A stretch of 64,000 nucleotides of DNA, taken from an uncultured Prevotellaceae bacterium. GTDB lineage: Bacteria > Bacteroidota > Bacteroidia > Bacteroidales > Bacteroidaceae. This document shows positions 22,494 to 36,057 of the stretch, piece after piece. How positions within the stretch are numbered: position 1 is the first letter of the stretch; each line of letters begins with the position of its first letter. The notes beneath the pieces are model-generated. The model made no database searches. It was not told the DNA's origin and worked only from the letters and a program-made list of their open reading frames with translations. The translations under genes and the position numbers were made by a program. The stretch spans positions 1 through 64,000 of the forward strand of contig CASFNA010000012.1 in assembly GCA_949295905.1 (NCBI GenBank), read 5' to 3'.

Positions 22494-24503
22494 ATGAAAA
22501 AGACTTTACTTTGTTTAGTCGCTTTCATGTTGTCGGTGACAATGGTTAGCGCACAAGAAAAGTTTATTGACGGACGTGGATTGAAGTCTGCTGTGACGAA
22601 CAAGATGGGTTCGGCACCGCGGAATTTAGTGCAAGGTGTCAAGAAGGCTCCAGTTCAGAGTGGTGTGAACAAAATTGCGCTTGACAATGATGAGCATCTT
22701 GTTGGTTTCTACACCACGGACGACCTTGATTTGTCAGGATATTCTTCTATTGGTCTTACCGGCTATCCTGGTAATCTTACTGCAGCTGTGATATTTACCC
22801 CAAGCGAATTGTCAAAAGCTGTAGGTGGAACTATCACAAAGATTCGTTTCGGACTTTCTACATCTGTTGAGGTGTCGCGTGTTTTCATTAGTCCTTTTGA
22901 TATGAGTACAGGTGAGATTTCCGACCCTGTTTCAGAGCAAACTATTACTTCTACCGTAAGTGGGTGGAATGATGTTATTCTTGATACACCTGTTGCCGTA
23001 GAAGAGGGTAAAAGCTATATGATTGGTTATGATTATGTTCAGGTTTCAGGTCAGGTAGACGAGGCATACCCACTTTTAACTGACTATAAGGTCAATAATA
23101 ATCCCAGTGACTATGGCTTTATGATTTATGGAAATTTGGATCAAGGTCTTGGCTGGTATACGATGGGAACCACTTACGGCAACCTTTGTATTCAGGCAGT
23201 TGTCAAAGGTGGAAAGTTTACAGATGACGACTTGACTCTTACATCTATCAGCACATCATCAGTGTTCAATAAAGGCGGCAGCAATGTTACTGTTAATTTG
23301 GGTGTGAAGAATAATGGTAATAAAGTTCCTTCATCTTATGCTATAGATATTGCTTTGGATGGTAATGTGGTTAAGACCCTGAATACGCCGGCTACTCTGT
23401 CTGGTGCCATACAAACAGTTAGCAGTGAGATAACTTTGCCTGCTAACTTGTCTGACGGCTCACATGAATTGACGGCTACTGTGGCGCAGATAAATGGCGT
23501 TAAGCCGACGGAAAATGTAGACGACGATGTCGTTTCGGGAACTCTTTTGTCTTATAGTGAAGAAATGCCTCACCAAAAGACTTTGGTAGAGCAATTCACT
23601 TCTACAAGTTGCACTTATTGCCCACTTGGCTATGACATGCTTAACGCGCTTACAGAAATACGTGACGATATAGCATGGGTGGCCATTCATGGTAATCAGA
23701 GTCCATATTATCCGGATGAATACACAACTGAGGATGGAGATATCTTGACTTCTTTTGAGATACTTGGTTGGCCAAGTGCTTCGTTCAACCGTTGCTATAT
23801 TCAGGATACTCAAATCAACTCTGACGGTTCATTGGCTGTTTTTATTAGTTGGAATGGCCAAGCGAGCCAGGTTGCTTCAATGTTTGACGAAGTTATTGAT
23901 ACTTATGCGTCTGTACCAGCATTTGCAACGGTTAATATCGCTTCGACTTATGACCCCTCTACACGTAATGTAAACATCAAGGTTACCGGTGATGCCGTAA
24001 AGGCATTCAAAGAGCTTATGGGCGATGATGCAGTGCTGTCTGTTTATCTGACAGAGGACGGTTTGGTTTCGCGCCAGAACAACGGCGGTACTTGGGTTAA
24101 TGATTATCCTCATGACCACGTATTCCGTTGTGCTGCAACAAATGTTCTCGGCGACCCGATTAAGTGGAATGGCGACAGCTATGAAAATGAGTTGAACGTA
24201 ACCCTTGACCGTGATTGGAATGCTGATAATATGAACATCGTTGCTTTCATAAGCCGACCGATAAAGATGGAGGGCGAGTACTATGTTTCAAGCCTGACGG
24301 ACGTATATGTAACCAATACAAACGTCGCAAAAGTTGGTGGAACTTCTACTGGCATAAGCGATACGATTGTTTCTTCAGAGGATAACGCTACAGAGGTTGC
24401 ACGTTACTCACTTGACGGCACAAGGCTGTCAGCTCCTACTAAGGGCATCAACATCGTCAAGATGTCTGACGGTACAACGAGGAAAGTTGTTGTAGCGGAG
24501 TAA
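22494..24503 (+). CDS. large Omp28-domain protein with T9SS-like C-terminal domain
   Basis: The 669-residue exported protein (signal MKKTLLCLVAFMLSVTMVSAQ) has three parts. The N-terminal beta-rich region (about 60-240) resembles choice-of-anchor or adhesion domains. A CARDB-like domain follows at about 245-355 (LTLTSISTSSVFNKGGSNVTVNLGVKNNG). The Omp28/thioredoxin-like domain starts at about 370 (TLVEQFTSTSCTYCPLGYDMLN) and includes an EILGWPSASFNR segment. The end (ARYSLDGTRLSAPTKGINIVKMSDGTTRKVVV) parallels that of the preceding gene, again a T9SS-like sorting domain. It is last in the cassette; a terminator follows 24 nt later. Substrate unknown. Confidence 0.82.
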   Translation: MKKTLLCLVAFMLSVTMVSAQEKFIDGRGLKSAVTNKMGSAPRNLVQGVKKAPVQSGVNKIALDNDEHLVGFYTTDDLDLSGYSSIGLTGYPGNLTAAVIFTPSELSKAVGGTITKIRFGLSTSVEVSRVFISPFDMSTGEISDPVSEQTITSTVSGWNDVILDTPVAVEEGKSYMIGYDYVQVSGQVDEAYPLLTDYKVNNNPSDYGFMIYGNLDQGLGWYTMGTTYGNLCIQAVVKGGKFTDDDLTLTSISTSSVFNKGGSNVTVNLGVKNNGNKVPSSYAIDIALDGNVVKTLNTPATLSGAIQTVSSEITLPANLSDGSHELTATVAQINGVKPTENVDDDVVSGTLLSYSEEMPHQKTLVEQFTSTSCTYCPLGYDMLNALTEIRDDIAWVAIHGNQSPYYPDEYTTEDGDILTSFEILGWPSASFNRCYIQDTQINSDGSLAVFISWNGQASQVASMFDEVIDTYASVPAFATVNIASTYDPSTRNVNIKVTGDAVKAFKELMGDDAVLSVYLTEDGLVSRQNNGGTWVNDYPHDHVFRCAATNVLGDPIKWNGDSYENELNVTLDRDWNADNMNIVAFISRPIKMEGEYYVSSLTDVYVTNTNVAKVGGTSTGISDTIVSSEDNATEVARYSLDGTRLSAPTKGINIVKMSDGTTRKVVVAE

Positions 24504-24527
24504 TTCTTGTTTACAGAATCTTGATAT

Positions 24528-24558
24528 AAAGAGGGACGCTTAGGCGTTCCTCTTTTTT
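24528..24558 (+). terminator. terminator of the thioredoxin/Omp28 cassette
   Basis: AAAGAGGGACGC pairs with GCGTTCCTCTTT (one G-U) across a TTAG loop, followed by T7. The next stretch (24560-24885) has no supportable gene. It contains a low-complexity run near 24645-24700 of GTGTTTCG/GTCTCTGTG-type words resembling widespread non-coding 'DTEAQ' repeats. Confidence 0.85.
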
Positions 24559-24888
24559 TGTGTGCAGGTTGTAATGCCATGCGTCTGTAGTAACTGCGTC
24601 TTGTCTAAAATGCGGATGCCGCTTCACGTTAGAATCTCTGCATTCACGTTCTCCGTGTTTCGTCAGTCTCTTGTGCTTCGGTGTCTCTGTGTTTCGGCGT
24701 GATTTGTAATCCGCTCAAACCGCCACTCCTTGCCACAACAAACACAGAACAGTCAATCGGATTGCAAACCGTTATATTGACAGCCGACATATTGCAAGTC
24801 CGCCGGAACGGATAATAGTCGGCATTATGCGGTCTGTCGCTGTCTGGCATTGCCTGTATAGCCGTATTTCGCCGTTAATGCAGAATCC

Positions 24889-25096
24889 TATTATTAACGT
24901 GAGTTCGGCATAACTTCTATTTTTCACAAACAGCGGAAACACCCTTTGTAGGGACATAATTCATTATGTCCGCACGCCGCGAAGAGGCGTATTATACAAG
25001 CAAAATTGCCCAAAAACGTTCTTTCAGAACGTGCGGACATAATGAATTATGTCCCTACAAAGGATGTTTTCTTATACCGAACTCACGTTATTATTG
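24889..25096. mobile_element. MITE-like nested inverted-repeat element
   Basis: Two 34-bp arms at 24943-24976 and 25030-25063 are perfect inverted repeats (CCTTTGTAGGGACATAAT...). Each arm contains its own near-palindrome GGACATAAT-GA-ATTATGTCC. Outside them a second pair at 24895-24913 and 25072-25090 (TAACGTGAGTTCGGCATAA) matches in inverse with one mismatch. The 53-bp centre holds a further hairpin, ACGTTCT-TTC-AGAACGT (25016-25032). There is no open reading frame. The structure fits a small non-autonomous transposable element or REP-type repeat; the transposase family is unknown. Target-site duplication is not obvious. Confidence 0.65.
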
Positions 25097-25140
25097 AATC
25101 CTAAAGCTTAGGATGGGCACTTTGAAGTGGGATGGATAAT

Positions 25141-25182
25141 AAAAAAGAATGCCAAATGATTGTAAGTAAATCACTTGGCATT
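25141..25182 (-). terminator. terminator of tRNA-Arg
   Basis: Minus-strand AATGCCAAGTGAT pairs with ATCATTTGGCATT (one G-U) and is followed by CTTTTTTATT. It lies directly downstream of the tRNA. Confidence 0.85.
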
Positions 25183-25190
25183 TCTTTGTG

Positions 25191-25264
25191 TGACCCCGAC
25201 AGGATTCAAACCTGTAACCTTCTGATCCGTAGTCAGATGCTCTATTCAGTTGAGCCACGGGGCC
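25191..25264 (-). tRNA. tRNA-Arg (anticodon ACG)
   Basis: The minus strand folds as a 74-nt tRNA. The acceptor GGCCCCG pairs with CGGGGTC, the D-arm has GCTC...GAGC, and the anticodon stem TCTGA/TCAGA encloses the loop CTACGGA, giving anticodon ACG (Arg, CGN codons after inosine modification). The T-arm is ACAGG-TTTGAAT-CCTGT with discriminator A. CCA is not encoded. It stands alone with its own promoter and terminator. Confidence 0.96.
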
Positions 25265-25282
25265 TTTTTCTTAATTGCGATG

Positions 25283-25314
25283 CAAAGGTACGCACTTTTT
25301 TTGTAACGACCAAA
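25283..25314 (-). promoter_or_regulatory. promoter of tRNA-Arg
   Basis: Minus-strand TTTG (25314 to 25311), 20 nt, TACCTTTG (25290 to 25283). The tRNA 5' end is 19 nt downstream. The rest of 25315-25500 shows nothing but a short inverted repeat CGATATGC/GCATATCG (25424/25449). Confidence 0.75.
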
Positions 25315-25500
25315 TGTTTCCGCCTCTTTTTTTAGAAAAACTTTATTTTTTATGTAAATTCCGGCATTTCTGTATTAATATTCGCGAAAGATACATGCAT
25401 ATGGCGGAAAGAACATGCGGAAGCGATATGCTTTCACGCTTTGGCACGGCATATCGTATTGACTGTTTCGTGTTCATGCTGCTTGGCGCATGCTGCGGAA

Positions 25501-25541
25501 TAAAAAGCCGGCTGGCACCAGATTCTGGTGCCAGCCGGCTT
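25501..25541 (-). terminator. terminator of the bamD-rpoZ-DUF4293 operon
   Basis: A perfect 15-bp stem, AGCCGGCTGGCACCA (25506-25520) with TGGTGCCAGCCGGCT (25526-25540), followed on the minus strand by TTTTTA. This is the strongest terminator hairpin in the window. Confidence 0.92.
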
Positions 25542-25572
25542 ATAGGTATAGGGTTGTCTTATTGTCCGGGTG

Positions 25573-26031
25573 TTATCTTATGCGGTCAGCCGAGCGCACC
25601 AACGCCTCGTCGGCCAGTATGGCCTTCCTTGCCATGAAGTGGAGCAGCATAGACACGGCAGGCAGTGCCGCCGCTATGGCGACTCTGAAGCCGCCTGCGG
25701 CTCCGTTGGTGTTGAGGGCCATTGCCGCGAATACTATGTACCATCCGAGTGCGAGCAGGATGTTGAACATGCAGAAGCGGCTTTGCACCATCCTGTTCTT
25801 GTATGAGAATATCGCCATCAGCGATATGGGGCAGGTGACGAGCAGTATTGCGAACAGCGCCCATACGGAGAAGTCATGGCTTCCGTCCGGGCGTACTATC
25901 CACAGGTTGTACATCACGGAGTTTCCGCCGAGTGCGTTGCCGGTTGCGAATTCGCCGAGTGGCAGGCACAGGCATGCTATCGATACGAGCACTGCCAGCA
26001 GCAGGAACAATGTCTGTTTACGCTGTATCAT
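25573..26031 (-). CDS. DUF4293 family membrane protein
   Basis: The 152-residue integral membrane protein has four hydrophobic segments (about 7-25, 57-77, 88-107 and 115-133). It starts MIQRKQTLFLLLAVLVSIACLCLP, a typical start for DUF4293, a Bacteroidota-specific family of unknown function. Its start codon overlaps the rpoZ stop by one base (TAATG), indicating translational coupling. A position after bamD and rpoZ is the usual neighbourhood for the family as I recall it. No catalytic motif is visible. Confidence 0.85.
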   Translation of the reverse strand: MIQRKQTLFLLLAVLVSIACLCLPLGEFATGNALGGNSVMYNLWIVRPDGSHDFSVWALFAILLVTCPISLMAIFSYKNRMVQSRFCMFNILLALGWYIVFAAMALNTNGAAGGFRVAIAAALPAVSMLLHFMARKAILADEALVRSADRIR

Positions 26032-26366
26032 TACGCTTCCTTTACGTTGTCCTTCTGCGTGTCGCGCCAGTACACGTTGCCGTCGATGAACTCCTGTGTG
26101 GCGAGCAGCGTGGGTTTGGGCAGCTTCTCGTAGTACCTTGATATTTCGATTTGTTCCCTGTTCTCGAACACTTCCTCAAGGCTGTCGTTGTAAGACGCGA
26201 ACTCCGCGAGCTTCTTGCTCAAGTCCTGCTTGATTTCGACGGAGATTTGGTTTGCGCGCTTTGAGATGATGGCGACGCTTTCGTAGATGTTTCCGGTTTC
26301 GTTACACAGGTCCATGATGTTGCGGGTCACTGTGTTGGTAGGGGCTTTTGACTTCTTATAATCCAT
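26031..26366 (-). CDS. rpoZ: RNA polymerase omega subunit (RpoZ/Rpb6-like)
   Basis: This 111-residue protein has the omega core: APTNTVTRNIMDLCNETGNIYESVAIISKRANQI, matching the conserved helix that clasps the beta-prime C-terminus. Bacteroidota omega differs from the E. coli form and is often annotated only by domain. It lies 28 nt after bamD and overlaps the DUF4293 start. The C-terminal part (KPTLLATQEFIDGNVYWRDTQKDN) resembles other Bacteroidota versions. Assignment rests on motif and gene order. Confidence 0.85.
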   Translation of the reverse strand: MDYKKSKAPTNTVTRNIMDLCNETGNIYESVAIISKRANQISVEIKQDLSKKLAEFASYNDSLEEVFENREQIEISRYYEKLPKPTLLATQEFIDGNVYWRDTQKDNVKEA

Positions 26367-26394
26367 TTCTTTATATAAGTTTTATGCTTTCTTG

Positions 26395-27222
26395 TTATTC
26401 CTCACCAGTAAATTTCTTGCAAGACGCGATGTATTTTTCGGCCAGTTTCTTGTTCTTCGACTCGGGAAACTCGTTTATGAAGCCGTAGCATTCGTCCTCG
26501 GCGTCGCGGTATCGGTCGAGCTTCTTTTCCTCCACGCTCTGCTCCGCCAGCTCGAACTTGCTCTTCATTATGAGCAGTGCGAAGTCCTCGCGCAGCGCAC
26601 TGTACGGATAGTCGTTGATGGCGTTCTGCGCTGTGATGATGCAAGCCTCGTAGTTGCTGCCTCCGCTGGTGCAGTTGCCGAAGTAGGTGCCGAGGTTGTA
26701 GTACAGCTCGGCCGAGTACAGTTCTTTCTTCACCAGCTTGTCCTGCAGCTCGAACAGGCGGCTCTGCGCTTTGTCCTTCAGCTTGGCCTCGGGGTATATG
26801 TCCATGTACTCCTGGAAAGCCGCGATTGAGTTGACCGTCTGCGTCTGGTCGAGCCTCGGCTCGGGCGTGCTCATGTAGAGGCTTTCGCCTATGTAGAACG
26901 ACGCCATTTCGGCGTAAATGCCTTTGGGATAAGTCTGGCGATACTTCTTGAACGTCATTGCCGCGCCCTCATAATCCATGTCGCAATACTGCGCCATGGC
27001 GAGCATGTATAGGCTTTCCTCGGCGTTGTCGGTACCTTTCTGTATGGTTACGAGTTCCTGCAACAGTGTTATTGCCTGGGCGTATTTGCCTCTTGCGAAG
27101 CACTCCTTCGCGTATTCATACTTGTATGCGTAGTCCTGTGATTTGTACACCTGGTTGAATTCGTGCGCGCATCCTGAAAGCAATATGACGGCAAATATCG
27201 GGATAAGAACTTTCTTCTTCAT
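26395..27222 (-). CDS. bamD: outer-membrane assembly lipoprotein BamD
   Basis: BamD is the TPR lipoprotein of the BAM complex that inserts outer-membrane barrels. The 275-residue product has a lipobox (MKKKVLIPIFAVILLSGC, Cys18) and then helical TPR pairs: KYEYAKECFARGKYAQAITLLQELV, LYMLAMAQYCDMDYEGAAMTFKKYRQTYPKG, AAFQEYMDIYPEAKL and LYYNLGTYFGN. ATG at 27222 is chosen because longer alternatives begin at or before the inferred transcription start (the -7 box ends at 27242). It leads bamD-rpoZ-DUF4293. Confidence 0.93.
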   Translation of the reverse strand: MKKKVLIPIFAVILLSGCAHEFNQVYKSQDYAYKYEYAKECFARGKYAQAITLLQELVTIQKGTDNAEESLYMLAMAQYCDMDYEGAAMTFKKYRQTYPKGIYAEMASFYIGESLYMSTPEPRLDQTQTVNSIAAFQEYMDIYPEAKLKDKAQSRLFELQDKLVKKELYSAELYYNLGTYFGNCTSGGSNYEACIITAQNAINDYPYSALREDFALLIMKSKFELAEQSVEEKKLDRYRDAEDECYGFINEFPESKNKKLAEKYIASCKKFTGEE

Positions 27223-27241
27223 AAAATTCCGCATTTGGCTG

Positions 27242-27272
27242 CAAAAATACACATTATCTTATAAATGGCAAA
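27242..27272 (-). promoter_or_regulatory. promoter of the bamD operon
   Basis: Minus-strand TTTG (27272 to 27269), 19 nt, TATTTTTG (27249 to 27242). The start codon is 20 nt beyond the -7 box, so the leader is about 15 nt. Confidence 0.8.
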
Positions 27273-27318
27273 GCTTTGCCTTCGATTTTAAGAAAAAATT
27301 GTTTTTATACTTGCCTTT

Positions 27319-27350
27319 TTTGCCGATGAATGGAATAATGGTTAACTTTG
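27319..27350 (+). promoter_or_regulatory. promoter of uvrB
   Basis: TTTG (27319-27322), 20 nt, TAACTTTG (27343-27350). The implied leader of about 205 nt contains a hairpin and a phased repeat array. Confidence 0.75.
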
Positions 27351-27380
27351 CATCCGGCGTGCATGGCTTTACGCCGGATG
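27351..27380 (+). promoter_or_regulatory. hairpin at the 5' end of the uvrB leader
   Basis: CATCCGGCGT (27351-27360) and ACGCCGGATG (27371-27380) are a perfect 10-bp inverted repeat with a 10-nt loop. It starts immediately after the -7 box, so it could be an operator or a 5' stabilising stem. Confidence 0.55.
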
Positions 27381-27459
27381 AAAGGCGGCCTTTGGGCTTG
27401 CAATATGCGGCCTTTCGGGCGCTGAAAGACGGCCTTTTACCGTGTGAAAGACGGTCTTT
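27381..27459 (+). repeat. 22-bp phased palindrome array B (4 units, uvrB leader)
   Basis: Units AAAGGCGGCCTTT, ATATGCGGCCTTT, AAAGACGGCCTTT and AAAGACGGTCTTT start at 27381, 27403, 27425 and 27447. All have the central base G and spacing is exactly 22 bp. The array would be transcribed as part of the uvrB leader. Confidence 0.85.
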
Positions 27460-27564
27460 TGCAAGGCGGTTTGCAACGCGCTGAACATCAGGAGATTACG
27501 AGAGCTTGTCGGAACGGCACTTGCCTGCTTGTCCCTCGTCAGCTTGTCAACTGAAAATAAAACA

Positions 27565-29607
27565 ATGAGCGACTTCAAACTTATATCCGAATACAGTCCT
27601 ACGGGCGACCAGCCCGAGGCCATACGCCAGCTTACCGACGGCGTGCTGGTCGGCGACGAGGCGCAGGTGCTTCTCGGCGTTACCGGCTCGGGCAAGACGT
27701 TCACCATAGCCAACGTCATAGCCAACGTGAACAAACCAACGCTCATATTGAGCCACAACAAGACGCTGGCAGCCCAGCTGTACAGCGAGATGAAGTCGTT
27801 TTTCCCCGACAACGCCGTAGAGTATTACGTTTCTTACTATGACTATTACCAGCCCGAGGCGTACCTGCCGCAGACCGACACCTACATAGAGAAAGACCTG
27901 GCCATCAACGAGGAGATTGACCGCCTGCGTCTGTCGGCCGTGTCGTCGCTGCTCTCGGGCAGGAAGGATGTTGTCGTGGTGTCTTCCGTGTCGTGCATAT
28001 ACGGTATGGGCGGCCCGGTGGAGATGGCCAAGAGCGTCATTTCGATAAAGCGCGGCCAGCGGCTTGACCGCAACGTCTTCCTGCGCAGCCTCGTCAACGC
28101 CCTCTACGTGCGCAACGACATTGAGCTGAAGCGCGGCAACTTCCGCGTGAAGGGCGACACCGTGGACGTATTCATGGCGTATAGCGACAACGTGCTGCGC
28201 GTGTCATTCTGGGACGACGAGATTGATTCAATCGAGGAGATAGACTCCGTCAGCTTCCACCGCCTCGCTTCGTTCGACGAATACCAGATATATCCGGCCA
28301 ACCTCTTCGTCACTTCCAAGGAGCAGACCGAAATAGCCATACGCGAAATACAGGACGACCTGGTGAAGCAGGTTGACTTCTTCAACGAGCAGGGCGACGC
28401 CATCAAGGCGCAGCGCATCAAGGAACGTGTAGAGTATGACATGGAAATGATTAAGGAACTGGGCCACAGCTCGGGCATTGAAAACTACTCGCGCTACTTT
28501 GACGGCCGCCAGCCCGGGCAGAAGCCGTACTGCCTGCTCGACTTTTTCCCGAAGGACTACCTGCTCGTAATCGACGAGAGCCACGTCAGCGTGCCGCAAA
28601 TCAGCGCGATGTACGGCGGCGACCGCGCCCGCAAGACCAACCTCGTGGAGTATGGCTTCCGCCTCCCGGCGGCCTTCGACAACCGCCCCCTGACATTCGA
28701 CGAGTTCCACTCGATGCTCCACCAGGTGATTTACGTGTCGGCCACGCCTGCCGATTACGAGCTGGCCGAGGCCGGCGGAGTGGTGGTGGAGCAGGTAATC
28801 CGCCCCACGGGACTGCTCGACCCCGAAATAGAAGTGCGCCCCAGCGAGAACCAGATAGACGACCTCATGGAGGAAATACTGCTGCGCAACGAGCGCGGAG
28901 AGCGCACCCTGGTCACCACATTGACCAAGCGCATGGCCGAGGAGCTGACCGAATACCTGCTGAACCACGGCGTCCGCGCCAACTACATACACAGCGACGT
29001 CGCCACGCTCGACCGTGTAAAGATTATGAACGACCTGCGCGAGGGGCTGTTCGACGTGCTCGTGGGTGTCAACCTGCTGCGCGAGGGCTTGGACTTGCCT
29101 GAAGTGTCGCTCGTGGCAATCCTCGATGCCGACAAGGAGGGCTTTCTCCGCTCTCACCGTTCGCTTACGCAGACGGCCGGCCGCGCCGCCCGCAACGTTA
29201 ACGGCAAGGTAATAATGTATGCCGACAAAATAACGGCCAGCATGCAGCTGACCATCGACGAGACACTGCGGCGGCGCGAAAAGCAGCTGCGTTACAACGA
29301 GCTTCACCACATCACTCCGCGCCAAATCACCAAGGACATCAAGCGCAACGCCCTCGGCACCGCACCCGTCGAGGCGGAGGCGGCCAAGGCTTCGCCGAAG
29401 TACAAGCCGTACATAGAGGAGGAGCACGTGGCCTTCGCCGCCGACCCTATTGTGCAGACCATGAGCCGCGAGCAGCTTGAGAAGAGCATAGCCAACACCA
29501 CACGCCTGATGAAGAAGGCCGCCAAGGAGCTTGACTTCATACAGGCGGCGCAGTTCCGCGACGAGCTTTTGAGGCTACAGGCCATGCTGGAAGGGAAACA
29601 GGCATAG
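27565..29607 (+). CDS. uvrB: excinuclease ABC subunit B
   Basis: UvrB is the damage-verifying helicase of nucleotide excision repair, loaded by UvrA and cut by UvrC. Visible features are Walker A LLGVTGSGKTFT (about residues 37-48), the beta-hairpin region YYVSYYDYYQPEAYLPQTD, the DEAD-like segment LLVIDESHV, the helicase motifs VSATPADYE and VGVNLLREGLDLPEVSLVAILDADKEG, QTAGRAARN, and a C-terminal UVR domain (IANTTRLMKKAAKELDFIQAAQFRDEL). Length 680 is typical. ATG at 27565 is chosen because the 12 residues before it lack family similarity. A long antisense open frame here is a codon-bias shadow. Confidence 0.97.
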   Translation: MSDFKLISEYSPTGDQPEAIRQLTDGVLVGDEAQVLLGVTGSGKTFTIANVIANVNKPTLILSHNKTLAAQLYSEMKSFFPDNAVEYYVSYYDYYQPEAYLPQTDTYIEKDLAINEEIDRLRLSAVSSLLSGRKDVVVVSSVSCIYGMGGPVEMAKSVISIKRGQRLDRNVFLRSLVNALYVRNDIELKRGNFRVKGDTVDVFMAYSDNVLRVSFWDDEIDSIEEIDSVSFHRLASFDEYQIYPANLFVTSKEQTEIAIREIQDDLVKQVDFFNEQGDAIKAQRIKERVEYDMEMIKELGHSSGIENYSRYFDGRQPGQKPYCLLDFFPKDYLLVIDESHVSVPQISAMYGGDRARKTNLVEYGFRLPAAFDNRPLTFDEFHSMLHQVIYVSATPADYELAEAGGVVVEQVIRPTGLLDPEIEVRPSENQIDDLMEEILLRNERGERTLVTTLTKRMAEELTEYLLNHGVRANYIHSDVATLDRVKIMNDLREGLFDVLVGVNLLREGLDLPEVSLVAILDADKEGFLRSHRSLTQTAGRAARNVNGKVIMYADKITASMQLTIDETLRRREKQLRYNELHHITPRQITKDIKRNALGTAPVEAEAAKASPKYKPYIEEEHVAFAADPIVQTMSREQLEKSIANTTRLMKKAAKELDFIQAAQFRDELLRLQAMLEGKQA

Positions 29608-29610
29608 TGA

Positions 29611-29639
29611 AGGCGGAACGCATGTTCCGCTTTCTTTTT
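29611..29639 (+). terminator. terminator of uvrB
   Basis: GCGGAAC-GCAT-GTTCCGC followed by TTTCTTTTT, just 5 nt after the stop codon. Confidence 0.85.
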
Positions 29640-29775
29640 GATTTCTGGTGACGCTCTCTGACTGCGTTATCCTGAAATGAAAATACTTTTGGCGGAAATA
29701 ATGCCGGGAAAAGTGTGCAAATGTAAATGCTTTAATACATGCGCGTTACTGTCTTGGGCGGCAAAGTGTGCAATG

Positions 29776-29940
29776 AAATGGGGCTGAAACGTGGAGTAAA
29801 AGCCGTTCAGACGGGTTGTAAGAGCGGCCTTTACTGGTAGTAATGACGGCTTTTACGGGCGCAAAAGGCCGTCGTTTGTGTTGCAAAATGCCGTCTTTGG
29901 CATGACGGAATACGGCCTTTAGCCGTTTAGACGGCCGTTT
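29776..29940 (+). repeat. 22-bp phased palindrome array C (6-7 units)
   Basis: Clear units start at 29798, 29820, 29842, 29864, 29886 and 29908: AAAAGCCGTTCAG, AAGAGCGGCCTTT, AATGACGGCTTTT, AAAGGCCGTCGTT, AAATGCCGTCTTT and GAATACGGCCTTT. A weak unit lies at 29776 and a slightly shifted one at 29928. Central-base orientation is mixed (C, G, G, C, C, G). It is the longest array, in the 577-bp gap between uvrB and the DUF4468 gene. Nothing else is recognised in that gap apart from the terminator and promoter. Confidence 0.85.
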
Positions 29941-30156
29941 CCGCAATGGCGGCAGGCCGTTTATGGCGTCGCCTTTCACTGTTTCGTGCAAATCCGTAGA
30001 CATTTCCCGATTGACATTTTGTAAGGATATTGCCCATTTGGGGCCGCATGGTGTCATGCCGTAAGGCCTCCGCCGTCGGCGCGTACAGTTGTTGTCCGTT
30101 TTGTCCCCGTTGATGTTAAATAATGCTTTTTGTTATGGCTGTCGGCTTAAAATTCG

Positions 30157-30164
30157 TAACTTTG
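30157..30164 (+). promoter_or_regulatory. -7 box of the DUF4468 gene
   Basis: TAACTTTG, 20 nt before the ATG at 30185. No TTTG lies at the ideal -33 distance; the nearest is 24 nt upstream. Confidence 0.6.
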
Positions 30165-30184
30165 CAAAAATATTTACGCTTGCA

Positions 30185-30832
30185 ATGAGACTGTTTTTAA
30201 TTCTTGCCGTGTGCCTTATGCCGCTGGCGGCGGTGGCGCAGGGCGTATGGGAAAGGCCTGACACTGCCGGTGATGCCGCCAAAAAGGTGAAGGAACAAAA
30301 GGCGGAGAAGCCTAATCCTGACGCGAAATACTTGGCCGGAGCTGTTACCGAGGTGGACGGCAAGGTGGTGTGGACGCTGGATGTTGACGTGCCGGGCAAG
30401 TCGGCCGACCAGATTTACAACCAGGTGTTGCAGTGTTTTACTGACCTTACCAAGACCGAGAACCAGATTGAAGGCAGCAGCGTGGCCTTGGTCAACAAGG
30501 CGGAGCACATGGTTGTCGCCACAATCAGGGAGTGGCTGGTGTTCACTGACAAGTTTTTCGCGCTTGACAGAACCAAGTTCTATTATACCCTCATAGCCAG
30601 CTGCGAGGACAACCACCTCAACGTAACCATGAGCCGCATATCATACCGTTACGAGGAAGGGCGCGACTCAGGCGGCGGCTCCGTGTACAAGGCGGAGGAG
30701 TGGATAAACGACAAGAACGCCTTGAACAAGAAAAAGACGCGCCTGTTGCCCGGTTCGGCCAAGTTCCGCCGCAAGACGGTTGACCGCAAGGACTATCTTT
30801 TCAGCGTCATCCGCGAGGCTGTGCTTCAATAG
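30185..30832 (+). CDS. exported DUF4468 domain protein
   Basis: The 215-residue product has a signal peptide (MRLFLILAVCLMPLAAVAQ). It continues with a short Lys/Glu/Pro-rich linker and a DUF4468-like domain (about 60-165: VVWTLDVDVPGKSADQIYNQVLQCFTDL...MVVATIREWLVF...LNVTMSRISYRYEEG). The fold is thought to be TBP-like; the function is unknown. ATG at 30185 is used because it starts the signal peptide and follows the -7 box. It precedes the small membrane protein by 15 nt, so these may be co-transcribed with the porin. Confidence 0.8.
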   Translation: MRLFLILAVCLMPLAAVAQGVWERPDTAGDAAKKVKEQKAEKPNPDAKYLAGAVTEVDGKVVWTLDVDVPGKSADQIYNQVLQCFTDLTKTENQIEGSSVALVNKAEHMVVATIREWLVFTDKFFALDRTKFYYTLIASCEDNHLNVTMSRISYRYEEGRDSGGGSVYKAEEWINDKNALNKKKTRLLPGSAKFRRKTVDRKDYLFSVIREAVLQ

Positions 30833-30847
30833 TTATTAATTGGCAAT

Positions 30848-31096
30848 ATGACAAACAACGAACAAATGACAACCAACCAAGACAACACCGCCGCTGAAAT
30901 GCGCCCAAGACACAGGCGGGGCGGCGGTGACGACCGCTACATCGTGTTGCGCAACGTGCTCAACATCATCTTCATGGTGGGTGCAGTGGTCGGCGTAGTG
31001 GTGTTTTATCAGTGCGGCCGTGAGGCCGGCACGGTAATCATCCTTGCCTCGATGCTGTTCAAGATTGTAGAATGTGTATTCCGTTTCATGAAATGA
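30848..31096 (+). CDS. small two-helix membrane protein
   Basis: I do not recognise this 82-residue protein. It has a polar N-terminus with a basic patch (RPRHRRGGG), two hydrophobic segments (about 35-54 and 60-77) and a very short C-terminus (FRFMK). Its stop overlaps the porin start (ATGA), a sign of real translation and coupling. It may assist or be co-regulated with the porin, but no motif supports a specific role. Confidence 0.65.
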   Translation: MTNNEQMTTNQDNTAAEMRPRHRRGGGDDRYIVLRNVLNIIFMVGAVVGVVVFYQCGREAGTVIILASMLFKIVECVFRFMK

Positions 31097-33432
31097 AAGC
31101 AAGGCTCATCTTTGCCCTGTCTGTGCTTTTAGCCTTGTCATGCCTGCCTGTCGGCGCGCAGGGCTTCAACCAGCTGACCGACCAGGGCGAATTCACAAAC
31201 TCCAGCACAAGCCGCGATTCGCGGCGCGACTCTCTCTCGCAGGGGCATAGGGAGATACCCAAGGGGCTGAAGGTGTGGACGGTTGACGAGCGTTTTGGCG
31301 AGCGCATCGCCGCCGAACCGGACACCATGCCCCACATGTACATGAACTCCATCTTCACCGAAGGCCTGCGCGGAGAGTACAATACGCTGGGCAACCTCGG
31401 CTCGCCGCGCATCAACCGCATATTCATAGACCGCGGAGAGCAGCAGCAGTTCATGTTCACCCAGCCTTATGATTACTTCATAACCCCGGTAGACAAGTTT
31501 CATTTTACCAACACGTTGTCGCCCATCACCAACCTTTCTTATAATTCATGCGGCAACAGGACAAACGGTGAAGACCACTTCAAGGCCCTGTTCGGCGTGA
31601 ACGCCGGCAAGCGTCTCGGCGTAGGTTTCAAGTTCGATTACCTGTACGGCCGCGGCTATTTCCAGAATCAGAGCACGTCCCACTTCAATTATTCGATGTA
31701 CGGCTCATATCTTGGTGAGCGTTACCAGGCACACCTGTTGTTCTCTACCAACCACGAGAAGGTGACCGAGAACGGCGGTATTACGGACGACCAGTATATC
31801 ACTCACCCGGAATCCTTTGAGGACAACTTCCGCAATGACGAAATACCTACGGTGCTACAGCAGAACTGGAACCGCAACGACAACCAGCACATCTTCTTCT
31901 CCCACAGGTACAGTTTCGGCTTCAGCCGCAAGGTGAAGATGACCGAAGACGAAATCAAGGCCAAGAAATTCGCCATGGAGTCGATGAAGGAGAACGCCGC
32001 CAGGAAGGCCAAGGAGGAGGCTCGCAAGAAGGCAGAAGAAGAAGGAAGGGATTTTGACGAAGACGAGTTTGACGAGCAAAAGACATTCTCCGGGAGGCCT
32101 GACGACGCCGTGATAGCGGGCAACGAGCCTGCCGACACCGTGAAGACGTCGGGCGGACGCATTGCCGTTGACAAGGCCGCGGCCGACAGCCTGCTTGCCG
32201 CCGACGCGCAGAAATCGGCCGAGATGCAGGGAGACACAACGTGGATGAAGGACGAGTATGTGCCCGTGACGAGCTTCATACATACCCTGAAGTTCGACAA
32301 CTATGAGCGCATATACCAGGCTTACGACACGCCTGAAGGCTATTATGCAAACACTTATCCCGTGCATGAGAAGCTGCCGGGCGACTCAATATACGACCGC
32401 ACGACGCATTATTCGCTGAAAAACACCTTCGCCGTGGCCTTGCTCGAAGGCTTTAACAAGTGGGCGAAGGCCGGATTGAGGGCTTTCGTGACATCGGATT
32501 TGAGGCATTTCACCCTGCCTGACTCCGTTGGAGGCCGCATGTCGTACAACGAGCACAACCTTAGCGTGGGCGGACAGCTGCTCAAGGCGCAGGGCAAGAC
32601 GTTGCATTACAACGTCACGGGAGAGTTCTGGCTCATGGGTGAGGATGCCGGACAGCTGAAGATTGACGGCAAGGCCGACCTCAACTTCCGCCTGTTCAAG
32701 GACACGGTGACGCTTGCCGCCAACGCTTTCTTCCACAGGTTGAACCCTACGTTCTATTACCGCCATTACCATTCAAGGCACTTATGGTGGGACAACGGCG
32801 GTCTGGACCAGGAACTGCGCACGCACATCGAGGGGCTGTTCTCGCTGAAACGCACTAAGACAAAGCTGCGCGTGGCTTACGACAACCTTCAGAACTATAC
32901 GTATTTCGCACAGAGTTACAACATAACTGAAGACTTTGGACGCAGCGGCAACACTGTTTCCGTGCGCCAGAGCGGCAAGAACATAAGCCTGCTTACATTG
33001 CAGCTGGCGCAGGATTTCCGTCTCGGGCCGCTTAACTGGCAGAATGTGGTAACCTATCAGAAGTCGAGCGACGAGGACGTGCTGCCCGTGCCTGCGCTCA
33101 ATGTGTACACAAACCTGTTCCTGCACTTCAAAATCGCCAAGGTGCTCACTGTGGACTTGGGAGCCGATGCGCGCTTCTTCACCAAGTACAAGGCACTCGA
33201 CTACAGTCCGGCTCTCGGCCAGTTCACCGTCCAGGACAACGGGGCGGCCAACGTGGAGATAGGCAATTACCCCATCGTCAACGCATATGCCAACATGCAC
33301 TTGAAGCATACGCGCTTCTTCGTGATGATGAGCCACGTCAACGCCAGCAGCGGCGACAGCTTTCTTGTGCCGCATTATCCCGTCAATGGAAGGATATTCC
33401 GCTTTGGCGTGTCGTGGAACTTCTTTAACTGA
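31093..33432 (+). CDS. putative porin (Bacteroidota family) with charged insertion
   Basis: The 779-residue protein has a signal peptide (MKARLIFALSVLLALSCLPVGAQ) and the family segment IFIDRGEQQQFMFTQPYDYFITPVDKFHFTNTLSPITNLSYNSCG. A barrel follows and ends FRFGVSWNFFN, a standard outer-membrane C-terminus. Between two early strands (about residues 281-385) lies a long hydrophilic insertion rich in Lys, Glu and Asp, including EEARKKAEEEGRDFDEDEFDEQK, unusual for a periplasmic turn or surface loop. The start overlaps the preceding small gene; an earlier in-frame TTG-type start is unlikely. The substrate is unknown. Confidence 0.82.
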   Translation: MKARLIFALSVLLALSCLPVGAQGFNQLTDQGEFTNSSTSRDSRRDSLSQGHREIPKGLKVWTVDERFGERIAAEPDTMPHMYMNSIFTEGLRGEYNTLGNLGSPRINRIFIDRGEQQQFMFTQPYDYFITPVDKFHFTNTLSPITNLSYNSCGNRTNGEDHFKALFGVNAGKRLGVGFKFDYLYGRGYFQNQSTSHFNYSMYGSYLGERYQAHLLFSTNHEKVTENGGITDDQYITHPESFEDNFRNDEIPTVLQQNWNRNDNQHIFFSHRYSFGFSRKVKMTEDEIKAKKFAMESMKENAARKAKEEARKKAEEEGRDFDEDEFDEQKTFSGRPDDAVIAGNEPADTVKTSGGRIAVDKAAADSLLAADAQKSAEMQGDTTWMKDEYVPVTSFIHTLKFDNYERIYQAYDTPEGYYANTYPVHEKLPGDSIYDRTTHYSLKNTFAVALLEGFNKWAKAGLRAFVTSDLRHFTLPDSVGGRMSYNEHNLSVGGQLLKAQGKTLHYNVTGEFWLMGEDAGQLKIDGKADLNFRLFKDTVTLAANAFFHRLNPTFYYRHYHSRHLWWDNGGLDQELRTHIEGLFSLKRTKTKLRVAYDNLQNYTYFAQSYNITEDFGRSGNTVSVRQSGKNISLLTLQLAQDFRLGPLNWQNVVTYQKSSDEDVLPVPALNVYTNLFLHFKIAKVLTVDLGADARFFTKYKALDYSPALGQFTVQDNGAANVEIGNYPIVNAYANMHLKHTRFFVMMSHVNASSGDSFLVPHYPVNGRIFRFGVSWNFFN

Positions 33433-33446
33433 TAATTGTTGTTTTA

Positions 33447-33478
33447 TTGGCTTATTACAATTGTTTTTTGTAACTTTG
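33447..33478 (+). promoter_or_regulatory. promoter of the aminotransferase/permease pair
   Basis: TAACTTTG (33471-33478) with TTG at 33447-33449, 21 nt upstream. A weak hairpin AATTGT/ACAATT followed by GTTTTTTG (33434-33469) overlaps it and may end the porin transcript. Confidence 0.65.
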
Positions 33479-33510
33479 CCACCGTTTGAAATAATAAAAA
33501 GACAATAACC

Positions 33511-34716
33511 ATGCCCCAGATATCAGTCCGCGGATTGGAAATGCCGGAGTCGCCGATACGCAAGCTTGCGCCTTTGGCCGCTGCGGCGAAGAAGCGCGGA
33601 ATAAAGGTTTACCATCTTAACATAGGCCAGCCCGACCTGCCTACGCCGCAGGTTGCGCTCGACGCCATACGCAACATCGACCGCACAATCCTTGAATACT
33701 CGCCGTCGCAGGGATATTCGAGCTACAGGGAGAAGCTGGTATCGTATTACAAGAAGTACGACATCAATGTAACGGCCGACGACATAATCATCACCTGCGG
33801 AGGCAGCGAGGCCGTGCTGTTCGCCTTCATGTCGTGCCTCAACCCCGGCGACGAGATTATCGTGCCCGAACCGGCCTACGCCAACTACATGGCTTTTGCC
33901 ATATCGGCAGGCGCTAAAATCCGTACCATCGCCACGACAATAGAGGAAGGCTTCTCGCTGCCAAAGGTCGAGAAGTTTGAGGAACTGATAAACGAGCGCA
34001 CGCGCGCCATACTTATATGTAATCCGAACAACCCTACGGGCTACCTTTACACGCGGCGCGAGATGCACCAGATACGCGACCTCGTGAAGAAATACGACCT
34101 TTACCTGTTTTCCGATGAGGTTTACCGTGAGTACATCTATACCGGCTCGCCTTACATTAGCGCCTGCCATCTTGAGGGAATAGAGCAGAACGTGGTGCTC
34201 ATCGACTCCGTAAGCAAGCGTTACAGCGAGTGCGGAATACGCATCGGCGCGCTTATCACCAAGAACGAGGAGGTGCGCCGCGCCGTTATGAAGTTCTGCC
34301 AGGCGCGCCTCTCGCCGCCGCTCATAGGGCAGATTGCCGCCGAGGCTTCACTCGACGCGCCTGAAGAGTATTACCGCAACGTGTACGACGAGTATGTGGA
34401 ACGCCGCAAATGCCTCATTGACGGGCTTAACCGGATACCGGGAGTATATTCGCCAATCCCCATGGGGGCGTTTTATACCGTGGCGAAGCTGCCCGTTGAC
34501 GACAGCGAGAAGTTCTGCCGATGGTGCCTTGAGGATTTTAATTATGAAGGAGAGACGGTCATGATGGCTCCGGCGTCAGGCTTTTATACCACTCCCGGAG
34601 CAGGGCGCAACCAGGTGAGGATTGCATATGTGTTGAATAAGGAAGACCTTATGCGGTCGCTGTTCGTGCTGCGCAAGGCGCTTGAGGCTTATCCGGGGAG
34701 GGTGGACGAAGAATGA
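33511..34716 (+). CDS. PLP-dependent class I/II aminotransferase
   Basis: This 401-residue cytoplasmic enzyme belongs to fold-type I PLP aminotransferases of the aspartate-aminotransferase-like group. Motifs seen: VYHLNIGQPDLPTP, ITCGGSEAVLFAF, ILICNPNNPTG, LFSDEVYREY and the Schiff-base lysine in DSVSKRYSECGIRIG, then GAGRNQVRIAYVL with the carboxylate-binding Arg. The SVSKRYS variant marks a Bacteroidota subgroup; amino-donor specificity is not readable. Its stop overlaps the next gene's start (ATGA), though the permease has no obvious metabolic link. Confidence 0.9.
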   Translation: MPQISVRGLEMPESPIRKLAPLAAAAKKRGIKVYHLNIGQPDLPTPQVALDAIRNIDRTILEYSPSQGYSSYREKLVSYYKKYDINVTADDIIITCGGSEAVLFAFMSCLNPGDEIIVPEPAYANYMAFAISAGAKIRTIATTIEEGFSLPKVEKFEELINERTRAILICNPNNPTGYLYTRREMHQIRDLVKKYDLYLFSDEVYREYIYTGSPYISACHLEGIEQNVVLIDSVSKRYSECGIRIGALITKNEEVRRAVMKFCQARLSPPLIGQIAAEASLDAPEEYYRNVYDEYVERRKCLIDGLNRIPGVYSPIPMGAFYTVAKLPVDDSEKFCRWCLEDFNYEGETVMMAPASGFYTTPGAGRNQVRIAYVLNKEDLMRSLFVLRKALEAYPGRVDEE

Positions 34717-35960
34717 ACCTGCCATTGTTTATAGCGAGGCGCATCTATTCCGCCAACGACGCCCGGCGCAAAGTGAGCCGCCCGGCCATGCGCATAGCCA
34801 CCGCCGGGGTAGCCATAGGGCTTGCCGTTATGCTTGTTTCGGTAAGCGTGGTTTTCGGTTTCAAGCACACCATACGCGACAAGGTGGTAGGTTTCGGCAG
34901 CCACATAACCGTCGCCAACTTCATGTCACTGCACGGCAGGGACACCCGTCCCATTTGCATTGACGACAGCATGATGGCCGTGCTGCGCTCTGTAGGCGGT
35001 GTCAAGCATGTGCAGAGGTACGCGTTCAAGCAGGGAATACTGAAGACCGACAGCGATTTTCTCGGCGTAGCGTTCAAGGGGATAGCGGCCGAATACGACA
35101 CTACGTTCATACACGACAACCTTGTAAGCGGCAGCATCCCGGCGTTCAGCGACTCCGTAGCGCACAACAAGATTCTCATATCCAAAATGATGGCCGACAA
35201 GCTGAGGCTGGCCGCAGGCGACAAGGTGTTCGCTTACTTCATAGACGGCGGCGGGGTGCGCGTCCGCCGCTTCACCGTTTCGGGCGTTTATCAGACAAAC
35301 CTTTCCAAGTTTGACGAGGCGATATGCTTCGCCGACCTTTACACTACCGTCCGCCTGAACGGCTGGCAGCCCGGTCAGGCAGGCGGAGCGGAGCTTGCCG
35401 TGAACGATTTCGGCAACGTGGACGCCGTTGAAGAGGCGCTGGTGAAGAAGGTCAACCGCACTACCGACCGTTACGGAGAGACCTATTCGTCGGAAACCGT
35501 GCAGGATTCCAACCCTCAAATCTTCACCTGGCTCGACCTGCTCGACCTCAACGTATGGATTATCCTCGCCCTCATGCTCTGCGTGGCAGGCTTCACCATG
35601 ATTTCAGGTCTGCTCATCATAATCCTCGAGCGCACGTCGATGATAGGCGTGCTGAAGGCTCTTGGTGCCCGCAACGGCACCGTGCGCAAGACGTTCCTGT
35701 GGTTCGCCGTGTTTATAATAGGCAAGGGTATGTTAATCGGGAACATCGTCGGCCTCGGCCTTATATTGTTGCAGAAGCTTACGGGCGCAGTCAAGCTCGA
35801 CGCCGCAACGTATTATGTTGACGTAGTTCCGGTAGAGTTCAACCTCTTGGCTATGCTTCTGCTCAATGCCGCAACGCTCATCGTCAGCGTGTTTGTACTC
35901 ATCGCTCCGAGCTTCCTTGCGTCAAGGGTGCATCCGGCAAAGTCGATGAGATACGAATGA
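34713..35960 (+). CDS. LolC/LolE-like ABC transporter permease (FtsX family)
   Basis: The 415-residue protein has one N-terminal membrane segment (about 27-48), a large extracytoplasmic domain (about 50-275), and three C-terminal segments (about 278-306, 320-352 and 376-400). This is the MacB/FtsX-type permease layout. The start NLPLFIARRIYSANDARRKVSRPAMRIATAGVAIGLAVML matches LolC/E-type proteins, which extract lipoproteins from the inner membrane for transfer to the outer membrane. No ATPase is adjacent, so a LolD partner would be encoded elsewhere. Translation is coupled to the aminotransferase. Confidence 0.84.
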   Translation: MNLPLFIARRIYSANDARRKVSRPAMRIATAGVAIGLAVMLVSVSVVFGFKHTIRDKVVGFGSHITVANFMSLHGRDTRPICIDDSMMAVLRSVGGVKHVQRYAFKQGILKTDSDFLGVAFKGIAAEYDTTFIHDNLVSGSIPAFSDSVAHNKILISKMMADKLRLAAGDKVFAYFIDGGGVRVRRFTVSGVYQTNLSKFDEAICFADLYTTVRLNGWQPGQAGGAELAVNDFGNVDAVEEALVKKVNRTTDRYGETYSSETVQDSNPQIFTWLDLLDLNVWIILALMLCVAGFTMISGLLIIILERTSMIGVLKALGARNGTVRKTFLWFAVFIIGKGMLIGNIVGLGLILLQKLTGAVKLDAATYYVDVVPVEFNLLAMLLLNAATLIVSVFVLIAPSFLASRVHPAKSMRYE

Positions 35961-36057
35961 AAAGTGAGAAGTGAGAAATGAAAAATGAAAAATCCAATAC
36001 TTGTTAAATTTTTGCATTTGGATTTTTCACTTTTCACTTTTCATTTTTCACTTCTCA
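35958..36057. repeat. long AT-rich inverted repeat abutting two stop codons
   Basis: The left arm (35958-35997, GAAAAGTGAGAAGTGAG... ending AAAAATCCAA) mirrors the right arm (36018-36057, TTGGATTTTTCACTTTTC...). The stop codons of the convergent permease and nitroreductase genes are the outer edges of the two arms. It probably serves as a bidirectional terminator. A related copy lies at 48619-48696. Confidence 0.8.

What the first reader, a model, noticed from the sequence alone, without database searches (positions are those of the whole stretch)
29776..29940. Family of intergenic palindrome arrays with an exact 22-bp register (longest copy)
Six clear 13-mers related to AAAGRC-S-GYCTTT start at 29798, 29820, 29842, 29864, 29886 and 29908, every 22 bp. 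The 9-bp linkers are unrelated and the 13-mers vary, yet the register is kept. The same rule holds in at least six other gaps (4562, 4715, 5728, 27381, 36860, 45437). 22 bp is two turns of B-DNA, so a DNA-binding protein that docks on one face, or a spacing-sensitive polymerising protein, would explain constraint on spacing over sequence. The odd-length palindrome has a central G or C that labels orientation, and orientation is mixed here. I know of no named repeat family with this description.
Basis: seen in the sequence. Interest (0 to 1): 0.75.

Follow-up and report, generated by a model that had tools for sequence, protein, structure and literature searches.

The report
Evenly spaced 22-bp DNA docking arrays
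Some Prevotella chromosomes carry hundreds of evenly spaced, mostly four-part DNA palindrome arrays with an exact 22-bp step, and the DNA for kilobases around them, genes included, rises and falls in GC content every 11 bp in step with the arrays, which points to an unrecognised way of folding or coating a bacterial chromosome.

Summary
In this genome (Prevotella in the broad sense, inferred from named hits) AAAGRCSGYCTTT occurs 602 times per strand against 3 for the reversed control. Copies pair at 22, 44, 66 and once 88 bp, at no other distance up to 160. A sampled 670 kb (about a quarter of the draft) holds 93 arrays; a shuffle holds none. Linkers have a consensus. Related species carry the same 22-bp architecture with their own cores. 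Arrays lie mostly between genes, avoid one another within about 4 kb and often keep their place in near relatives.

Around them GC content oscillates at 10.995 bp, phase-locked to arrays over kilobases and through genes, mostly by synonymous codon placement. It falls nearly to noise beyond 5 kb from arrays and was not seen as a line in E. coli or four genomes of other families. One clade's version is probably the published 188-bp repeat PINSR, function unknown. I propose docking sites for a sequence-specific nucleoid protein anchoring a kilobase-scale, one-contact-per-turn structure. The binder is not identified.

The parts
29820..29920 (.). Array of five 13-mers at an exact 22-bp step (29820, 29842, 29864, 29886, 29908), 5' of the DUF4468 gene and 3' of uvrB; weak flanking units at 29798 (5 mismatches) and 29952 (4)
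   Evidence: gene names; an array at the same gene end in Marseilla massiliensis locus L045, though at a different distance and with linkers unlike
27381..27459 (.). Four-unit array in the divergent gap between a YfiO-like gene (minus) and uvrB (plus)
   Evidence: array at the same gene end in L112, 70 bp from uvrB there against 69 here
4715..4793 (.). Four-unit array (three good units, the fourth at 4781 degraded)
4562..4640 (.). Four degraded units at the 22-bp step, starting 153 bp upstream of the array at 4715; one of 3 intervals under 1.5 kb among 84 in the sample
5750..5784 (.). Two-unit remnant (5750, 5772)
36860..36938 (.). Three good units plus a degraded fourth, between a nitroreductase gene (minus) and a pyridine nucleotide-disulphide oxidoreductase/rhodanese gene (plus)
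45437..45515 (.). Degraded array, one good unit and three weak ones
1..64000 (.). 11-bp GC lattice: a Fourier line at 10.997 bp across the window (20.1 times background; 16.2 at 11.000 with arrays masked); stronger at about 0-8 kb and 26-46 kb, near noise at about 8-24 kb and after 46 kb. The 6 arrays used are not significantly in phase on this contig alone (R 0.49, p 0.23)

Best explanation
The arrays are high-affinity docking sites for a sequence-specific nucleoid protein, most simply four dimers, one per 22 bp (two turns at 11 bp), on one face of DNA whose A/T tracts are phased at 11 bp. From these anchors, set one per roughly 6-10 kb between genes, the protein or a partner holds the DNA for up to about 5 kb on each side in a regular structure with one contact per turn of 10.995 bp. 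DNA held this way has acquired, by selection or by position-dependent mutation, a GC rhythm in the same phase, in genes mostly through synonymous codon choice. The protein and its core site change together between species, so each species has its own core while register, unit number and linker type largely stay. Shown: arrays, register, spacing, positional conservation in near relatives, species-specific cores, kilobase phase lock in several species. Inferred: the protein, its oligomeric state, the coating or wrapping, the anchoring role.
For: Register independent of sequence: a four-unit similarity scan peaks at spacing 22 in G000, G108, G063, G016 and G085; a four-palindrome scan does so in G000, G108 and G063, with 33 a weaker second peak in G000 and G063, and shows little in G016 and G085. 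Place and step kept: array-bearing gene ends coincide in near relatives (30 both, 36 and 17 single, 227 neither; with one partner of at least 60% identity per gene end 21, 18, 8 and 159, OR 23, p 4.5e-12). In 8 of 23 pairs, from 5 distinct arrays, gene-to-array distance agrees within 1 bp; over the 23 pairs linker identity averages 0.49 against 0.44 for unrelated pairs. Cores are species-specific: 41 of 160 genomes of the genus match the generic two-unit pattern, against 2 of 158 others of the order with one hit each. Even spacing: 92 arrays, CV 0.49 (3 intervals over 20 kb set aside) against 0.68-0.77 in gene-boundary nulls, none of 2000 as extreme. Lattice: line at 10.993-11.001 bp in 8 of 8 contigs, autocorrelation to lags of 4-6 kb, array phase equals phase of flanks 1-4 kb away (R 0.43, p about 5e-15), power 3.5-4.8 within 5 kb of an array and 1.1-1.4 beyond. 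Synonymous shuffling cuts coding power from 8.42 to 3.07, full codon shuffling to 1.79 (control band 1.99; 8 shuffles each). Divergent gaps are not avoided (22 of 73 array placements; 56 of 311 gaps).
Against: No protein was identified. G164, G189 and G010 carry arrays but show no clear lattice in 40-60 kb (z 1.6, 2.9, 3.3) and G071 only z 6.2 in 18 kb. G063 has a weak line (z 8.5) but its arrays are not phase-locked to flanks (R 0.14, p 0.6), and its contig C2 has 4 arrays in 100 kb and no line at 11. In 2 of 8 own contigs the arrays are not significantly in phase (C1 p 0.2, C12 p 0.23). In distant species positional conservation is not significant (OR 2.4, p 0.12). Evenness is weak in G108 (CV 0.71), and with all intervals kept one stricter null is not exceeded (CV 0.85 against 0.84, p 0.62). 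Random anchors in G000 also give R 0.20 (p 6e-4), because the lattice is widespread, so 0.61 and 0.43 must be read against that. The loss of power beyond 5 kb rests on 50 windows; one array-poor island still has 2.30, and a weak array falls inside it. Non-Prevotella G041 gives z 5.4 with control bands as high. The array scans find only arrays in step, so they cannot show arrays that lost the step. Phased A/T tracts alone could supply part of the effect.
Confidence: 0.5

Rival explanations
1. Curved-DNA pins for plectonemes: the eight phased A/T tracts of a four-unit array bend the DNA, fix the tips of supercoiled loops every 6-10 kb, and the 10.995-bp lattice records the underwound helical repeat. 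No dedicated sequence-specific protein is needed.
For: A/T tracts alternate about every 11 bp in the versions seen. Phased A-tracts are described as lying in plectoneme loops and 11-bp signals as a structural code (passages of PMC4132750). Even spacing.
Against: Within a species the cores are far more constrained than bending needs, yet they differ between species. The preferred unit number and the 22-bp rather than 11-bp identity of the step are unexplained. Controls with ordinary bacterial DNA show no long coherence.
Confidence: 0.2
2. A mobile or copy-amplified intergenic repeat (REP/BIME- or MITE-like, as PINSR was described as a repeat), with even spacing due to insertion avoidance near existing copies and no cellular role.
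For: Hundreds of copies, recent near-identical copies in G156, G170 and G108, absence of arrays from a stretch with a Mu portal gene, short-range avoidance, and array presence on one side only in 4 of 11 compared gaps.
Against: No Y1/RAYT match in array-bearing G012, G063, G071, G084, G102 and G108, though G000, G004, G010, G077, G089 and G100 have one or two. No constant ends in the flank profile of this genome. Places shared across species. Does not explain a kilobase GC lattice in genes.
Confidence: 0.17
3. RNA hairpins or bidirectional terminators: neighbouring units pair as stems in transcripts.
For: Units 1-2 and 3-4 match as reverse complements more than shuffled partners (z 13.5; 85 of 398 exact; also units 1-2 in 82 oriented arrays, 0 of 2000 shuffles). 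Arrays lie nearer the upstream stop in 26 of 37 tandem gaps.
Against: Units 1-3 and 2-4 show it too (z 7.5) and 2-3 match directly (z 7.1), so mixed strand orientation explains much of it. Divergent gaps are not avoided. In most G156 and G170 arrays the units face one way and cannot pair well.
Confidence: 0.06
4. DNA uptake signals for transformation.
For: Species-specific, numerous and evenly spaced. That known uptake sequences are evenly spaced is recalled, not looked up.
Against: About one per 7 kb, mostly intergenic, mostly four-unit palindrome arrays, and a helical lattice in genes have no place in uptake as I know it; one paper search found nothing.
Confidence: 0.04

Closest known systems
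[quoted passage not shown] PMC4755523, section 3.4 read)
   Same: Intergenic, 177 and 184 copies in two strains, judged not protein-coding, about three-quarters at places conserved between strains, absent from most strain-specific mobile regions, and present downstream of tnaA.
   Different: PINSR was described as one 188-bp sequence limited to a clade. In the section read, no 22-bp register, relatives in other species, spacing or lattice is reported. That G108 belongs to that clade is inferred; the published consensus is in a figure and was not compared.
REP/BIME/REPIN elements with RAYT transposases (PMC3733652 abstract, PMC6006769 passages)
   Same: Hundreds of short intergenic palindromes, species-specific, often paired in inverse orientation.
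   Different: Exact 22-bp step, mostly four units, no link to Y1 transposases, divergent gaps not avoided.
About 11-bp bacterial sequence periodicity, or structural code (passages of PMC4132750, PMC7537859 and PMC3372288)
   Same: 11-bp GC/AT rhythm mostly in third codon positions.
   Different: Signals are described as about 100 bp long, and one study explored half-lives of 5-60 bp. Here phase holds over kilobases and is locked to arrays. A very persistent signal in Mycoplasma hyopneumoniae is mentioned; as I read it, that is presence along the chromosome, not phase.
BrickBuilt MITEs of Porphyromonas gingivalis (PMC4596501 abstract)
   Same: Intergenic Bacteroidales element built of 23-nt tandem repeats.
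   Different: 19 copies in one strain, direct repeats without spacers, leader and tail with inverted-repeat ends.
MatP/matS, parS and plasmid iterons (recalled)
   Same: Chromosomal palindromes or arrays of about 22-bp repeats read by dedicated proteins.
   Different: Far fewer sites, or one replication origin; no helical lattice known to me.

Membership tests
REP/BIME with RAYT | Associated Y1 (TnpA_REP) transposase in genomes rich in the element | tested here: not met
   No PF01797 match in array-bearing G012, G063, G071, G084, G102, G108; matches in this genome and in many array-poor genomes (64 of 100 overall)
REP/BIME with RAYT | GTAG/GTGG or CGTC foot at a hairpin | not tested
   No dedicated scan was run
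REP/BIME with RAYT | Mostly between tandem or convergent genes | tested here: not met
   Divergent gaps hold 22 of 73 array placements though they are 56 of 311 gaps of 60 bp or more
PINSR | 188-bp intergenic repeat in the P. intermedia/nigrescens group | tested here: inconclusive
   G108 repeat conserved over about 190-220 bp and found downstream of a tryptophanase-family gene; G108 is unnamed and the published consensus was not available
MITE | Constant terminal inverted repeats and target duplications | tested here: inconclusive
   No constant ends in flank profiles of this genome, conservation fades gradually; empty sites were not aligned
Intrinsic terminator or RNA hairpin | Stem pairing kept by compensatory change, in transcribed DNA | tested here: inconclusive
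   Reverse-complement matching of units is partly an orientation effect; most G156/G170 arrays face one way; transcription not testable
Ordinary 11-bp bacterial periodicity | Signal decays within about 100 bp | tested here: not met
   Oscillation persists to lags of 4-6 kb in G000
DNA uptake sequence | Uptake preference in transformation | not testable with these tools
   Needs an experiment

The most novel reading that the evidence does not exclude
Array-bearing Prevotella species have a chromatin-like chromosome: a register-locked nucleoprotein structure nucleated at evenly spaced arrays, mostly of four units, holds DNA with one contact every 10.995 bp over kilobases, and this helical phase is written into the genome, genes included, as a second code laid over the protein code.
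Probability: 0.4. Interest if true: 0.95.

Novelty: categorically new. Interest (0 to 1): 0.88.

Why it matters
I know of no sequence-encoded, kilobase-long helical register in a bacterial chromosome, and the searches listed found none. Here the register, its anchors and its imprint on synonymous codons can be read directly from genomes, and the lattice is strongest in the named strain Marseilla massiliensis An824. If right, it makes the question whether DNA keeps a fixed rotational phase in vivo directly testable, explains part of codon choice in these bacteria, and would give PINSR-type repeats a function.

Tried and rejected
Mobile REP/RAYT reading: tested with PF01797 and dropped. Pure hairpin reading: unit pairing is real as a statistic, but orientation mixing and one-way arrays in G156/G170 undercut it. 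A universal + - - + orientation looked likely after and was not confirmed across species. A recurring neighbour gene that might encode the binder: neighbour clustering showed no cluster that stood out; the clusters were not annotated with a family library. Synteny: first pass 7 gaps with arrays in both, 4 in one, 79 arrays without a comparable gap; with distant species too few shared gaps, then not significant. The strict one-array-per-gap null on all intervals gave no evenness signal (p 0.62) and random non-coding placement p 0.042; with intervals above 20 kb set aside, all gene-boundary nulls are exceeded.

Rows dropped or doubled: one search compared 23 of the 30 shared ends; the 7 left out were five hits of 27-50% identity, one overlapping locus and one second gene of the same gap. 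One search counts some gene ends several times and some genomes twice, so I reran it with one partner of at least 60% identity per end. and later used 80 of the 81 loci. Loci under 5 kb were skipped. In one search a 696-aa ORF (2394-4484) had no Pfam family. G016 and G085, taken as array-negative from the AAAG pattern, proved to have arrays of other sequence.

Papers: ten searches; three found nothing. Of the papers listed I opened nine; PMC5771137 and PMC5608340 (passages) held nothing on this. Only aimed at long sequence periodicity. Subscription papers are mostly missing from the library.

Full report
WHAT IS THERE. The ladder in the finding is real: five 13-mers at 29820-29908, each within 2 mismatches of AAAGRCSGYCTTT, exactly 22 bp apart. 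The sixth, at 29798, is poor (5 mismatches). No five-unit ladder in 200 shuffled windows comes near it (total 8 against 23 or more). Genome-wide the motif occurs 602 times per strand, its reversed control 3 times. In 275 kb, copies with at most one mismatch are paired at 22 (46), 44 (25), 66 (12) and 88 bp (1) and at no other distance up to 160. In 670 kb, about a quarter of the draft genome, a four-unit scan finds 93 arrays, none in one shuffle of the same pieces. By extrapolation there are near 380. Of 39 arrays listed, 23 have four units, 15 fewer, one five. The linkers have a consensus, roughly YGCNNTGCR, and the outer half-linkers are conserved too.

WHOSE IT IS. The generic two-unit pattern AAAGN5CTTT-N9-AAAGN5CTTT occurs in 41 of 160 genomes of the genus including this one. 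Outside the genus, 2 of 158 genomes of the order have one hit each. Cores differ by species: AAAGGTCATCTTT, AAAGCGGCTCTTT, AAAGCTATGCTTT, AAAGGGCTGCTTT, AAAGACGCCCTTT. G016 and G085, with no match, carry arrays with other arms (ATTTG..., AATTTCGCCCAAATT) at the same step. A scan for four similar units peaks at 22 bp in G000, G108, G063, G016 and G085. A scan for four palindromes does so in G000, G108 and G063, with 33 bp a weaker second peak in G000 (17 against 56) and G063 (6 against 16); it shows little in G016 and G085. In one search G024 is borderline, G069, E. coli and G043 show nothing at 22, and G477, G512 and G041 show no excess there.

WHERE IT LIES. Using simple ORF calls, 83 of 92 arrays could be placed: 73 in gaps (37 tandem, 22 divergent, 14 convergent, against 204, 56 and 51 gaps of 60 bp or more) and 10 within ORFs of 120 aa or more, some of which may be spurious. 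In tandem gaps 26 of 37 are nearer the upstream stop. Spacing is even: intervals under 2.5 kb number 6 of 84 against 20-23 expected, and CV is 0.49 against 0.68-0.77, none of 2000 null sets as extreme. The CV sets aside the 3 intervals above 20 kb; on all intervals one stricter null is not exceeded (p 0.62). The pair correlation shows avoidance up to about 4.5 kb and no long-range order (0.15, 0.57, 0.64, then about 1). Contig C1 of G063 is more regular still (CV 0.27, 13 arrays), but its C2 has only 4 arrays in 100 kb; G108 is less regular (0.71). The largest array-free stretch, 48 kb of contig C5, has a Mu portal gene (1 of 10 ORFs scanned, of 17 over 900 bp).

HOW IT EVOLVES. Between this genome and near relatives (179 reciprocal best pairs, mean identity 73%) array-bearing gene ends coincide: 30 both, 36 and 17 single, 227 neither (OR 11.1, p 3e-12). 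With one partner of at least 60% identity per gene end the table is 21, 18, 8 and 159 (OR 23, p 4.5e-12). For distant species (94 pairs, 51%) OR is 2.4, p 0.12. In 8 of 23 compared pairs, from 5 distinct arrays of this genome, the distance from gene to array agrees to 1 bp. Over the 23 pairs core identity is 0.76 and linker identity 0.49, against 0.72 and 0.44 for non-orthologous pairs: linkers have nearly randomised while the step has not. The scan finds only arrays in step, so lost steps would be missed, but no other spacing is comparably enriched. The array named in the finding has a counterpart at the DUF4468 gene end in locus L045.

THE LATTICE. Flank profiles showed G and C peaks every 11 bp, phase-locked beyond 130 bp. 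Following it outward, GC content keeps an 11.0-bp rhythm in the phase of the array to at least 2.2 kb on both sides, also in stretches that are coding throughout (coherence 8.8-31 at period 11 in twenty 110-bp steps; at most 7.1 at period 9 and 4.9 at 13). Without anchors, the autocorrelation of GC content oscillates at 11 bp out to lags of 4-6 kb. Each of 8 contigs has a Fourier line at 10.993-11.001 bp, 14 to 93 times background; with arrays masked it is 12 to 80 times. Arrays then sit near the GC maximum (R 0.37-0.76, mean phase -0.5 to 0.4 rad; 6 of 8 contigs below p 0.05). The common period is 10.995. Power is 3.5-4.8 within 5 kb of an array and 1.1-1.4 farther away (noise 1; 50 windows). 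The C5 stretch (1.36) and the array-free part of this window (0.83) are near noise, while a third array-poor stretch keeps 2.30. Array phase agrees with flanks 1-4 kb away in this genome (R 0.43, p about 5e-15). With flanks from 0.15 to 3 kb it agrees in this genome (0.61), G108 (0.66), G085 (0.72, p 0.02) and G016 (0.43, p 0.04), not in G063 (0.14); random anchors give 0.20. Among 27 samples the line is clear in 16 array-bearing Prevotella samples, 15 genomes at most (z 8.5-46, Marseilla massiliensis highest). It is weak in G071 (z 6.2, 18 kb only) and not clear in array-bearing G164, G189 and G010, in G024 and G069, in four genomes of other families, or in E. coli. Of these G041 gives z 5.4 but equally high control bands. 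In one search none of the five non-Prevotella controls has a line.

WHAT CARRIES IT. The GC amplitude is 3.3% at third codon positions (z 21), 1.7% at first, 1.1% at second, 2.1% outside genes. In coding DNA alone, power 8.42 falls to 3.07 when synonymous codons are shuffled within genes and to 1.79 when all codons are (control band 1.99). So most of it is synonymous, with a smaller share in protein sequence. Selection and position-dependent mutation both fit.

READING. What stays constant is the 22-bp step, mostly four units, A/T arms around a GC-rich core, a palindromic linker and, in most species sampled, a helical phase shared with kilobases of DNA. What changes is the core, species by species. 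That is what one expects of sites for a fast-evolving DNA-binding protein docking on one face, from which an ordered structure spreads. A period of 10.995 bp equals the repeat of B-DNA underwound by about 4.5% (from 10.5 bp, recalled), so supercoiling geometry may set the constant. The binder was not found. Y1 transposases do not track arrays, and neighbour clustering gave no candidate.

WHAT IS KNOWN. PINSR of Prevotella intermedia (section 3.4 of PMC4755523 read) is probably this element in one clade: an array lies about 280 bp downstream of a tryptophanase-family gene in unnamed G108, and its repeat is conserved over roughly 190-220 bp. Its authors left function open, and that section reports no register. 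The 11-bp bacterial signal is known, but as signals of about 100 bp (PMC4132750 passages) and fitted with half-lives of 5-60 bp in one study (PMC7537859 passages). Kilobase phase coherence and its locking to arrays were not found in ten searches of the open-access library, two of which aimed at periodicity.

LIMITS. Genes are ORF calls without a trained predictor. The genome is a draft of 86% completeness. Other genomes are samples of 18-300 kb, some chosen around known arrays. Only one non-Bacteroidales control, 50 kb of E. coli, was used.

Noticed in passing
L035-L037 (own genome, contig C5 about 22-70 kb): A 48-kb array-free stretch with a Mu-type portal gene and several large ORFs without Pfam family; GC like its surroundings but the 11-bp lattice is near noise. 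Arrays and lattice may thus mark long-resident DNA.
   Followed up: partly
window 5000-27000: Array-free 22-kb stretch at noise level for the lattice and lower in GC (0.464 against 0.501); a candidate for recent acquisition.
   Followed up: no
window 29707-29720 and 29760-29773: Two near-identical copies of GGMAAAGTGTGCAA beside the array; a similar AGTGTGCAATTTT stretch stands at an array edge in G164 (L142) and G189 (L156).
   Followed up: no
L012:744-822 (own genome, contig C3): An array about 380 bp from one of the two Y1-type transposase matches of this genome (C3:1200-1547); presence of such genes does not track arrays across species.
   Followed up: partly
flanks of several arrays, e.g. 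L031:2037, L042:18763, L057: Besides TTGATTATCA-type sequence at the outer 22-bp position, a second flanking motif TCATCCGCA recurs (6 counts in 174 flanks of G000); its meaning is unknown.
   Followed up: no
L141-L143 (G164), L156-L158 (G189): Species whose inner units are often full palindromes and whose outer units are ATATAT-like have arrays but no detectable lattice in 60 kb each, which could separate array function from lattice formation.
   Followed up: partly
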